From Bifidobacterium breve (lineage in GTDB: Bacteria > Actinomycetota > Thermoleophilia > Solirubrobacterales > Solirubrobacteraceae): a stretch of DNA of 64,000 nucleotides. Below the pieces are notes generated by a model that worked only from the letters and a program-made list of their open reading frames with translations, was not told the DNA's origin and made no database searches. The DNA lies in contig CAMCVN010000008.1 in the NCBI GenBank assembly GCA_945881845.1, forward strand, positions 1-64,000, given 5' to 3'. A program made the translations under genes and the position numbers. This document shows, one piece after another, positions 22,800 through 24,953 of this stretch. Positions within the stretch are counted from its first letter, which is position 1. Each line of letters starts with the position of its first letter.

Positions 22800-22824
22800 G
22801 GAGCACTGTGACGCAGAAGTGTGC

Positions 22825-22852
22825 GCTTGTGTGTGAGGGGGCGCACACAAGC
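22825..22852. repeat. Inverted repeat GCTTGTGTG / CACACAAGC
   Basis: Nine-base perfect arms at 22825-22833 and 22844-22852 around TGAGGGGGCG. A second, imperfect copy follows at once: TGTGTGAGG (about 22853-22861) and CACACAA (22868-22874). The CACACAA of this second copy belongs to the 15-bp direct repeat that recurs at 24939. Could be a protein-binding or recombination site. Confidence 0.7.
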
Positions 22853-22863
22853 TGTGTGAGGTA

Positions 22864-22878
22864 AGGCACACAAACTGC
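22864..22878 (+). repeat. Left copy of 15-bp direct repeat
   Basis: AGGCACACAAACTGC, identical to 24939-24953. The two copies are 2075 bases apart and enclose only the fibronectin/Lcl-type gene. Confidence 0.8.
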
Positions 22879-23071
22879 TTCTTGGAATCGCGTGGATATA
22901 GCTTTCAACGCCACCCTGCCGTGTGCCTAGTCTGGTGCCCTACTGGCGCGTCTGGTGGTCCGGGCTGGTAGTTTGCCGCAGAGGTACTTCTAAGTCATCT
23001 GTTGACGTGCGACGTTCGTCGCCTCGCTGCCTGTTGACAAATCAACGTTTTTGGGATTGGGGATCAGGTAC

Positions 23072-24709
23072 ATGGCGAGGGTTTTGGCTGTTGGTGGGGT
23101 GCGGTTTGTGTTGGCTGGCGTGCTGGTTGCTGCGCTCGCGGCATGCGTTGTGGGCCGTGCTGAGGCTGCTTCGGTTTTCTCGTCTTCGTTTGCGGCGCCG
23201 TCTGCTCTTGCTAATTCGGCTGCGTCTGCCCCTTCGGTTGTTGCTGGTGATCGCGCTCTGACTTTGAAGTGGTCTGCTGTGAAGGGTGCTGCTGGTTATC
23301 GCGTTAGTTGGCGTGGGCGTGTGCTCAAGGGTGGTAAGCCAACTGCGGTGTGGTCAGCTAAGTGGCTTGGGTTGAAGGTGCTTAAGGCTTCCGCGCGTTC
23401 GTACAAGGCCACCGGTCTGGTCAATGGTGCTCAGTATCAGCTCAGGTTGGAAACGAATACGAAGGCGAAGAAGGCGGCGTGGGTGGTTAAGTCAACTTTG
23501 GTTGGCTCGCCGGAAGCGCCTGTTCCGGCAGCGACCATCCCGGGCGCTCCGACGAGTGTTTCGGGCGTGGCTGGTGACGGGCAGGTTGTGGTGTCGTGGT
23601 TGGCTCCGTCTAGTGATGGTGGCTCTGCGATCACCGCTTACGTAGTCACTGCGCTTGGTTTTGGTAACTCGGCTGGGTGCTTCACGACGGGCGCCCTTTC
23701 CTGCTCGGTCGCTGGGCTCAGGAACGGCAGCCCTTACACGTTCACTGTGGTGGCAACGAATGCTCGTGGTAGTTCGGTCGCTTCGGTGGCGTCCGCTGCC
23801 GCTACGCCGGCCACGGTGCCGGGCGCGCCGACGAGTGTTTCGGGGGTGGCTGGTGACACTTCGGTTGTGGTGTCGTGGTTGGCTCCGTCTAGTGATGGTG
23901 GCTCTGCGATCACCGGTTACACGGTCACTGCGCCTGGTGGTGGTTCACAAGCGTGCGCAACGGCAACCCTGTCTTGCACTGTCACTGGGCTAACTAATGG
24001 CACGCCTTACAGGTTCACTGCGGTGGCAACTAATGCTCTTGGTAATTCGGGCGCTTCGGTGGTGTCCGCTGCCGTTACGCCAAGCGTGGCGTCGTGCGCT
24101 AACGGTCGCGCGGTGTGTGTGGTTGGTGACACTGGTCCTGGCGGCGGCAAGGTCTTCTACGTCCTTGGTGGTTCAGAGACTGTGCCTGGCGCGGCGTGTG
24201 GTTTGAGCTGTCGTTACCTGGAGGCTGCGCCGGCGGGTTGGAATTCCGGTGGTAGTCCTGATCCAATCCTTCAGTGGGGTGGCGGGAGCCGCACTGCGGG
24301 GCAGTGCAGTAATAAGGTCATCCCTGGCGCTGCGGGCACTGGTATTGGTTCTGGTTTCGCGAATACCACCGCGATTATGGCTGACTGCCCCAACACTGAT
24401 CCGTTAAATCCTCAGTCGGCTCCTGCTGCGCTTGCTGCTTCAACCTATGCGCCGACCGTCAATGGTGTGGTCGTCACGGGCTGGTTCCTGCCATCCAAGG
24501 ATGAGCTCAACGCGCTTGATACCTCCAATCGCCCATCTTCTGACAATGGTGTTGGTGGGTTGTTTCCCAGTGGCTTCTACTGGTCGTCGTCGCAGGGTGA
24601 TGTGGAAAACGCGTGGGGCCAGGCCGTCGGCCTCGGCGGCGGGTTCTACTGGCAGAACTTCAACGTTAAGAACGACGTCACCCGAGTGAGGCCGGTTCGG
24701 GCTTTTTAG
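23072..24709 (+). CDS. Secreted fibronectin type III protein with C-terminal Lcl/DUF1566-like domain
   Basis: A 545-residue exported protein. The N-terminal signal could be cleaved as a lipoprotein (LAAC, Cys25) or after AEA. Three FN3-type units follow: a divergent one (about 52-145) and two near-identical ones (157-249 and 250-342, each starting PGAPTSVSG). The C-terminal part (about 350-545) has GDTGPGGGKVFY, CRYLEAAPAGW, WFLPSKDELNAL, YWSSSQ and VRPVRAF, the pattern of Lcl/DUF1566 surface domains. Role probably surface display or adhesion. I start at ATG 23072 (TTG 23051 is in frame). Codon use is T-rich and unlike its neighbours. Confidence 0.85.
   Translation: MARVLAVGGVRFVLAGVLVAALAACVVGRAEAASVFSSSFAAPSALANSAASAPSVVAGDRALTLKWSAVKGAAGYRVSWRGRVLKGGKPTAVWSAKWLGLKVLKASARSYKATGLVNGAQYQLRLETNTKAKKAAWVVKSTLVGSPEAPVPAATIPGAPTSVSGVAGDGQVVVSWLAPSSDGGSAITAYVVTALGFGNSAGCFTTGALSCSVAGLRNGSPYTFTVVATNARGSSVASVASAAATPATVPGAPTSVSGVAGDTSVVVSWLAPSSDGGSAITGYTVTAPGGGSQACATATLSCTVTGLTNGTPYRFTAVATNALGNSGASVVSAAVTPSVASCANGRAVCVVGDTGPGGGKVFYVLGGSETVPGAACGLSCRYLEAAPAGWNSGGSPDPILQWGGGSRTAGQCSNKVIPGAAGTGIGSGFANTTAIMADCPNTDPLNPQSAPAALAASTYAPTVNGVVVTGWFLPSKDELNALDTSNRPSSDNGVGGLFPSGFYWSSSQGDVENAWGQAVGLGGGFYWQNFNVKNDVTRVRPVRAF
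23541..24098 (+). repeat. Tandem 279-bp duplication encoding two FN3 domains
   Basis: Two head-to-tail 93-codon units (23541-23819 and 23820-24098). Their first ~90 bases are nearly identical at DNA level, including the long stretch that encodes WLAPSSDGGSAIT, while the later parts differ more. This indicates a recent duplication or gene conversion within the gene. Confidence 0.8.
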
Positions 24710-24742
24710 CTATTTAACTATTTGCTGTTAAGCGGTTTGCTT

Positions 24743-24768
24743 CGTGCCCGTGAGGGCGCGGAGTTTTT
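24743..24768 (+). terminator. Intrinsic terminator after the FN3/Lcl gene
   Basis: Stem CGTGCCC (24743-24749) and GGGCGCG (24754-24760) with one T-G pair, closed by a GTGA tetraloop, then GAG and TTTTT (24764-24768). It lies 33 bases after the stop of the secreted-protein gene. It is one of the few canonical terminators in the window. Confidence 0.65.
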
Positions 24769-24938
24769 CAGCTTGGAGAGTGGTTGTTGTGGCGCTCTAC
24801 CGGCGTTGCCGCGTTGACGGTCGCCGCACGGGTCACGCGTCGCGTAGGGAACGCTAAATCCGGCGTACCTTGGCAGCGACTAGCACGAAGTTAGATGACC
24901 GCACGTTGGAACAATTCCTATACCCACGGGATTCCACG

Positions 24939-24953
24939 AGGCACACAAACTGC
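24939..24953 (+). repeat. Right copy of 15-bp direct repeat
   Basis: AGGCACACAAACTGC, identical to 22864-22878. It ends 35 bases before the tlyA start codon. The TTGTGTG partner seen beside the left copy is absent here. Confidence 0.8.

What the first reader, a model, noticed from the sequence alone, without database searches (positions are those of the whole stretch)
22864..24953. Direct-repeat-bounded island carrying a secreted FN3/Lcl-type protein
AGGCACACAAACTGC occurs at 22864 and 24939, exactly flanking one gene whose codon use differs sharply (22 of the first 50 codons end in T, against 8 of 50 in dxs). A chance 15-bp match between such short flanks is very unlikely. There is no recombinase inside, so this may be a non-autonomous cassette or a scar of site-specific insertion between dxs and tlyA.
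Basis: partly seen in the sequence, partly recalled or inferred. Interest (0 to 1): 0.75.

Follow-up and report, generated by a model that had tools for sequence, protein, structure and literature searches.

The report
Transposon-like cassette carrying variable surface protein
A 2.07-kb piece of DNA between two housekeeping genes has the ends and target-site duplication of a transposon but carries a fast-changing secreted, probably adhesive, protein instead of a transposase, and related lake bacteria carry copies at other places, so it is most likely a mobile cassette that spreads a variable surface protein.

Summary
In detail: AGGCACACAAACTGC occurs at 22864 and 24939 and nowhere else in the 2.07-Mb genome. 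The element is 22877-24942. The real target duplication is probably 9 bp (ACACAAACT); the 15-mer arises because the target matches the TIR ends. Six relatives have an empty dxs-tlyA site. In relative G014 the same TIRs bound cassettes at serA/permease and at a divergent gene pair (ends on separate contigs, paired by gene order), plus one right end at dxs-tlyA at the same base. No transposase lies inside the window element. Cassette noncoding DNA is 83-91% identical between G000 and G014 although tlyA dS is 1.46, so the cassette moved between lineages. Best reading: a mobile insertion cassette (MIC)-like non-autonomous element, mobilised in trans by an unidentified transposase, whose passenger gene also exists as a TIR-less copy beside an acyltransferase gene. 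The protein's C-terminal 43 residues are hypervariable (dN>dS in all six pairs), resembling targets of diversity-generating retroelements, but no reverse transcriptase or template was found. The odd codon use belongs to the gene family, not to the insertion.

The parts
22868..22876 (+). left copy of the target-site duplication ACACAAACT (probable 9-bp core of the 15-mer 22864-22878)
   Evidence: limits of the duplication from the G014 insertions and empty sites
22877..22901 (+). left terminal inverted repeat GCTTCTTGGAATCGCGTGGATATAG
   Evidence: same sequence at cassette ends in G014 and G020
22902..23071 (+). left noncoding part and upstream region of the gene; inner part shared with TIR-less copies, outer part only with TIR-bearing copies
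   Evidence: alignment; 83-85% identical to G014 cassettes
23072..24709 (+). passenger gene: 545-aa protein with signal-like N-terminus (reading of the sequence), FN3 stretches, Lcl_C-like C-terminus
   Evidence: homologues
24578..24706 (+). hypervariable C-terminal segment (YWSSS to the end)
   Evidence: dN > dS in six pairs; codon columns
24710..24917 (+). right noncoding part
   Evidence: 88-91% identical to G014 cassettes although tlyA dS is 1.46
24918..24942 (-). right terminal inverted repeat GCCTCGTGGAATCCCGTGGGTATAG
24943..24951 (+). right copy of the target-site duplication ACACAAACT (core of the 15-mer 24939-24953)
22853..22872 (+). small hairpin TGTGTG-N8-CACACA whose 3' arm contains the insertion point (weak lead on target choice)

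Best explanation
A non-autonomous transposable element of the mobile-insertion-cassette kind: 25-bp terminal inverted repeats, one passenger gene, no transposase. Inferred mechanism: a transposase encoded elsewhere (probably DDE type, not identified) binds the TIRs in trans, moves the cassette, and joins it to staggered cuts, duplicating about 9 bp of target. The passenger gene also exists as a TIR-less copy beside an acyltransferase gene and was probably captured from there. Copies then spread between lineages of lake actinobacteria into short intergenic spacers. The passenger makes a secreted FN3 protein with a probable lectin-like tip that diversifies quickly. Shown: TIRs, duplication, empty sites, recurrence at other loci, spread after the host split, dN > dS. 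Inferred: transposase in trans, direction of capture, adhesive function.
For: TIRs directly inside the duplication. Same TIRs end FN3/Lcl units with unrelated flanks in G014 and G020, and occur nowhere else in 146 family or 232 order genomes. Empty dxs-tlyA site in G004, G005, G007, G008, G010, G013. Two further insertions in G014 with empty sites in relatives and 9-bp duplications ACACAAACT and CGCCAACCG/CGCCAACAG. Noncoding parts 83-91% identical between G000 and G014 while tlyA is 72.8% identical with dS 1.46. TIR-less copies beside an acyltransferase gene, and a remnant of that locus's neighbour next to the right TIR in G020 C11.
Against: No transposase with these TIRs was found; only the ISL3 family was tested directly. 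G014 and G020 ends lie on separate contigs, so pairing is inferred from gene order. The two TIRs of the window element differ at several positions. All genomes are metagenome-assembled. No movement was observed.
Confidence: 0.85

Rival explanations
1. Site-specific recombinase cassette: the 15-mer is an attachment site and the unit was inserted by an integrase acting in trans.
For: Same 9-mer ACACAAACT at two loci and the same base hit at dxs-tlyA in two species.
Against: Targets differ (CGCCAAC.G at the third site); inverted repeats at both ends and a target-derived duplication fit transposition; the 15-mer is absent elsewhere in the genome; empty sites carry one target copy that varies between relatives.
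Confidence: 0.06
2. Diversity-generating retroelement (DGR) target: the gene's C-terminal segment is, or recently was, mutated by a reverse transcriptase acting in trans, and mobility is secondary. Compatible with the cassette reading.
For: Hypervariable codons keep their third base (mostly C, in some columns T) while bases 1 and 2 take all four letters, between invariant codons; dN 0.29-0.50 against dS 0.08-0.23. DUF1566 is reported as the commonest annotated domain of DGR targets (PMC6642488, PMC4159848).
Against: No RVT_1 match in 12 genomes, five of them at least 92% complete. A predicted template finds only the variable regions themselves and low-complexity or other Lcl-type genes in 101 genomes and in 1.0 Mb of G014. 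Adenines are kept in about 20 of 24 CAG codons inside the segment. Third-base use of the window segment equals the host average. Indels occur.
Confidence: 0.12
3. Plain duplication of the gene by ectopic recombination, the repeats being coincidence.
For: Several TIR-less copies and tandem copies exist in G014 and G020.
Against: TIRs at both ends, target duplication and clean empty sites at three loci.
Confidence: 0.03
4. Old insertion inherited from the common ancestor of G000 and G014 and precisely lost in the others, rather than two insertions at the same base.
For: Same insertion base in G000 and G014 at dxs-tlyA.
Against: Noncoding parts are 88% identical while tlyA synonymous sites are saturated; six closer relatives of G000 are empty.
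Confidence: 0.1

Closest known systems
Mobile insertion cassettes (MIC231 of Bacillus cereus mobilised in trans by IS231A; mic-qnrD, PMC3913671)
   Same: Two inverted repeats, target duplication, passenger gene in place of a transposase.
   Different: Partner insertion sequence unknown; passenger is a hypervariable surface-type protein; copies in several species; TIR sequence not matched to any element here.
IS4-family elements (PMC2266710)
   Same: Duplications of about 10 bp (9 bp for the IS10 subgroup) fit the 9 bp seen here.
   Different: Listed IS4 ends start with CA or CT or have other motifs, unlike GCCTCTTGG; no IS4 transposase was looked for.
DGR variable proteins with DUF1566 domain (PMC6642488, PMC4159848)
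   Same: C-terminal variable segment in a DUF1566/Lcl_C-like domain, nonsynonymous hypervariation.
   Different: No reverse transcriptase or template found; invariant adenines inside the segment.
Legionella collagen-like protein Lcl (PMC11162425)
   Same: Secreted protein with a C-terminal domain of the same Pfam family, there C-type-lectin-like and glycosaminoglycan binding.
   Different: FN3 stretches instead of collagen repeats; Lcl_C match is below the Pfam cut-off.

Membership tests
Mobile insertion cassette (MIC) | bracketed by two inverted repeats | tested here: met
   22877-22901 / 24918-24942
Mobile insertion cassette (MIC) | duplication of the target site | tested here: met
   about 9 bp, with empty sites in relatives
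Mobile insertion cassette (MIC) | no transposase inside, passenger gene instead | tested here: met
   only the FN3/Lcl gene and overlapping spurious frames
Mobile insertion cassette (MIC) | ends match an insertion sequence whose transposase acts in trans | tested here: inconclusive
   no other element with these TIRs in 232 order genomes; most transposase families not searched
ISL3 family partner | ISL3 transposase present in the host | tested here: not met
   PF01610 absent from G000, G014, G020 and the genus
IS4 family partner | IS4-type transposase with these TIRs | not tested
   only duplication length compared with PMC2266710
DGR target | reverse transcriptase in the genome | tested here: not met
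   PF00078 absent from 12 genomes; assemblies incomplete
DGR target | template repeat | tested here: not met
   a guessed template was used
DGR target | changes confined to template adenines | tested here: inconclusive
   NNC/NNT-type columns but conserved CAG adenines
Pfam Lcl_C (PF07603) | score above the curated cut-off | tested here: not met
   24.1 bits against 34.9, E 4.8e-5, residues 457-543: a distant relative at most

The most novel reading that the evidence does not exclude
A mobile cassette system that scatters copies of a DGR-type variable surface protein within and between genomes, the copies being diversified in trans by a retroelement located elsewhere in the population, so that mobility and targeted hypermutation act on the same gene.
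Probability: 0.08. Interest if true: 0.8.

Novelty: new member of a known kind. Interest (0 to 1): 0.5.

Why it matters
It shows transposon-type mobilisation of a fast-evolving surface protein between lineages of small-genome lake actinobacteria in which no partner transposase was found. Defined ends, targets and empty sites make the mechanism testable. Two insertions at the same base, and the same 9-mer target at another locus, suggest a target preference worth testing.

Tried and rejected
ISL3 transposase as partner (suggested by the TIR start): absent from the hosts. DGR: no reverse transcriptase, no template. TIR and a variable-region pattern in IMG/VR: none. Cassette ends in plasmids and phages: only insignificant hits. 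The protein in viral contigs: four FN3-region matches only. Structure prediction from a 3-sequence alignment failed (pLDDT 31), so no fold search was made. No solved structure matched the C-terminal part by sequence. Hairpin targeting: about 10% of positions in the window qualify by chance, post hoc, kept only as a lead. Codon use as a sign of foreign origin: rejected.

Full report
Observation. The two 15-mers are exact and at the stated places, the only ones in the window and in the genome. The codon counts are right.

Anatomy. Directly inside the direct repeats lies an inverted repeat, 22877-22901 and 24918-24942. The same sequence, consensus GCCTCTTGGAATCSCGTGGATATAG, ends FN3/Lcl gene units at other places: G014 C110 and C50 (left ends), C129, C66 and C150 (right ends), and G020 C11 (right end). 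In 146 family genomes and 232 order genomes it occurs only in G000, G014 and G020, always beside this gene. An exact scan of GTDB contigs found only three records, which correspond to G014 and G020 contigs; one title names a Solirubrobacterales bacterium, the other, implausibly, Bifidobacterium breve.

Empty sites. G004, G005, G007, G008, G010 and G013 have an uninterrupted dxs-tlyA spacer with a single copy of the GCACACA region. In G014, serA (C129) and a permease gene (C110) each run into a cassette end; these genes are neighbours in G000, G004, G007 and G008. The same holds for a 3-hydroxyacyl-CoA-dehydrogenase-like gene (C50) and a thiolase-like gene (C150), divergent neighbours in six relatives (gene names are my reading of the sequences). 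The junctions give duplications ACACAAACT/ACACAAACT and CGCCAACCG/CGCCAACAG. Mismatches just outside these limit the duplication to about 9 bp, with TIRs starting at G. In the window the target happens to continue with bases equal to the TIR ends (AGGC on the left, GC on the right), which makes the repeat look 15 bp long (inference).

History. tlyA of G000 and G014 is 72.8% identical with dS 1.46, yet the right noncoding part is 88-91% and the left 83-85% identical. The cassette therefore moved between lineages after they split. G014 is inserted at dxs-tlyA at the same base as G000 (29 bp before CGGTAGCG in both) while closer relatives of G000 are empty. Independent insertion at a preferred target is the best reading; the left flank in G014 is not assembled. 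TIR-less copies of the gene sit beside an acyltransferase-like gene in G000 (C36/C46), G007, G008 and G014 (C99). The G020 element contains, next to its right TIR, a remnant of the sequence that follows those copies, which suggests capture from that locus. The N-terminal tree does not settle the number of captures.

The protein. Signal-like N-terminus, FN3 stretches, and a C-terminal region with a sub-threshold Lcl_C match. The last 43 residues differ between TIR-bearing copies with dN 0.29-0.50 and dS 0.08-0.23 in all six pairs, next to noncoding DNA that is 88-94% identical. Variable codons tend to keep their third base. DUF1566, the Pfam family PF07603 now called Lcl_C, is a frequent DGR target domain (PMC6642488, PMC4159848), and the Lcl domain is C-type-lectin-like and recognises glycosaminoglycans (PMC11162425). 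No reverse transcriptase and no template were found, and adenines in CAG codons are kept, so ordinary diversifying selection, perhaps with recombination between copies, is the more likely cause.

Classification. By its stated defining features (two inverted repeats, no transposase, duplicated target; PMC3913671) it is a mobile insertion cassette. The partner insertion sequence is not identified, so that feature stays open. ISL3 was tested and is absent; IS4 and other families were not tested.

Limits. All genomes are metagenome-assembled. Paired ends in G014 are inferred from gene order. No movement was observed. The 720-aa query was four protein pieces joined only as a search device.

Noticed in passing
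window 24578-24706 and the homologous segments in L040, L042, L043, L048, L053, L054, L055: C-terminal segment of the passenger protein is hypervariable with dN above dS and DGR-like codon pattern, although no reverse transcriptase or template was found.
   Followed up: partly
L040 (G020:C2), L048 (G014:C110), L050 (G020:C7), L051 (G020:C3): Further copies of the gene, some in tandem and some with unrelated upstream flanks but no recognisable TIR, often at contig ends; a second way of dispersal is possible.
   Followed up: no
window 22810-22875: Two successive TGTGTG...CACACA hairpins in the dxs-tlyA spacer, conserved in relatives; the G014 serA-permease target also has TGTGTG-N6-CACACAAACT.
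   Followed up: partly
L066, L068 (CAMDLG01 contigs): A public MAG labelled Bifidobacterium breve corresponds to G014, a genome of the window's own genus, so the label looks wrong.
   Followed up: no
L184, L188, L178: Asn/Gln-rich short lipoprotein-like genes in G000, G020 and G012 that match the predicted template only by low complexity.
   Followed up: no
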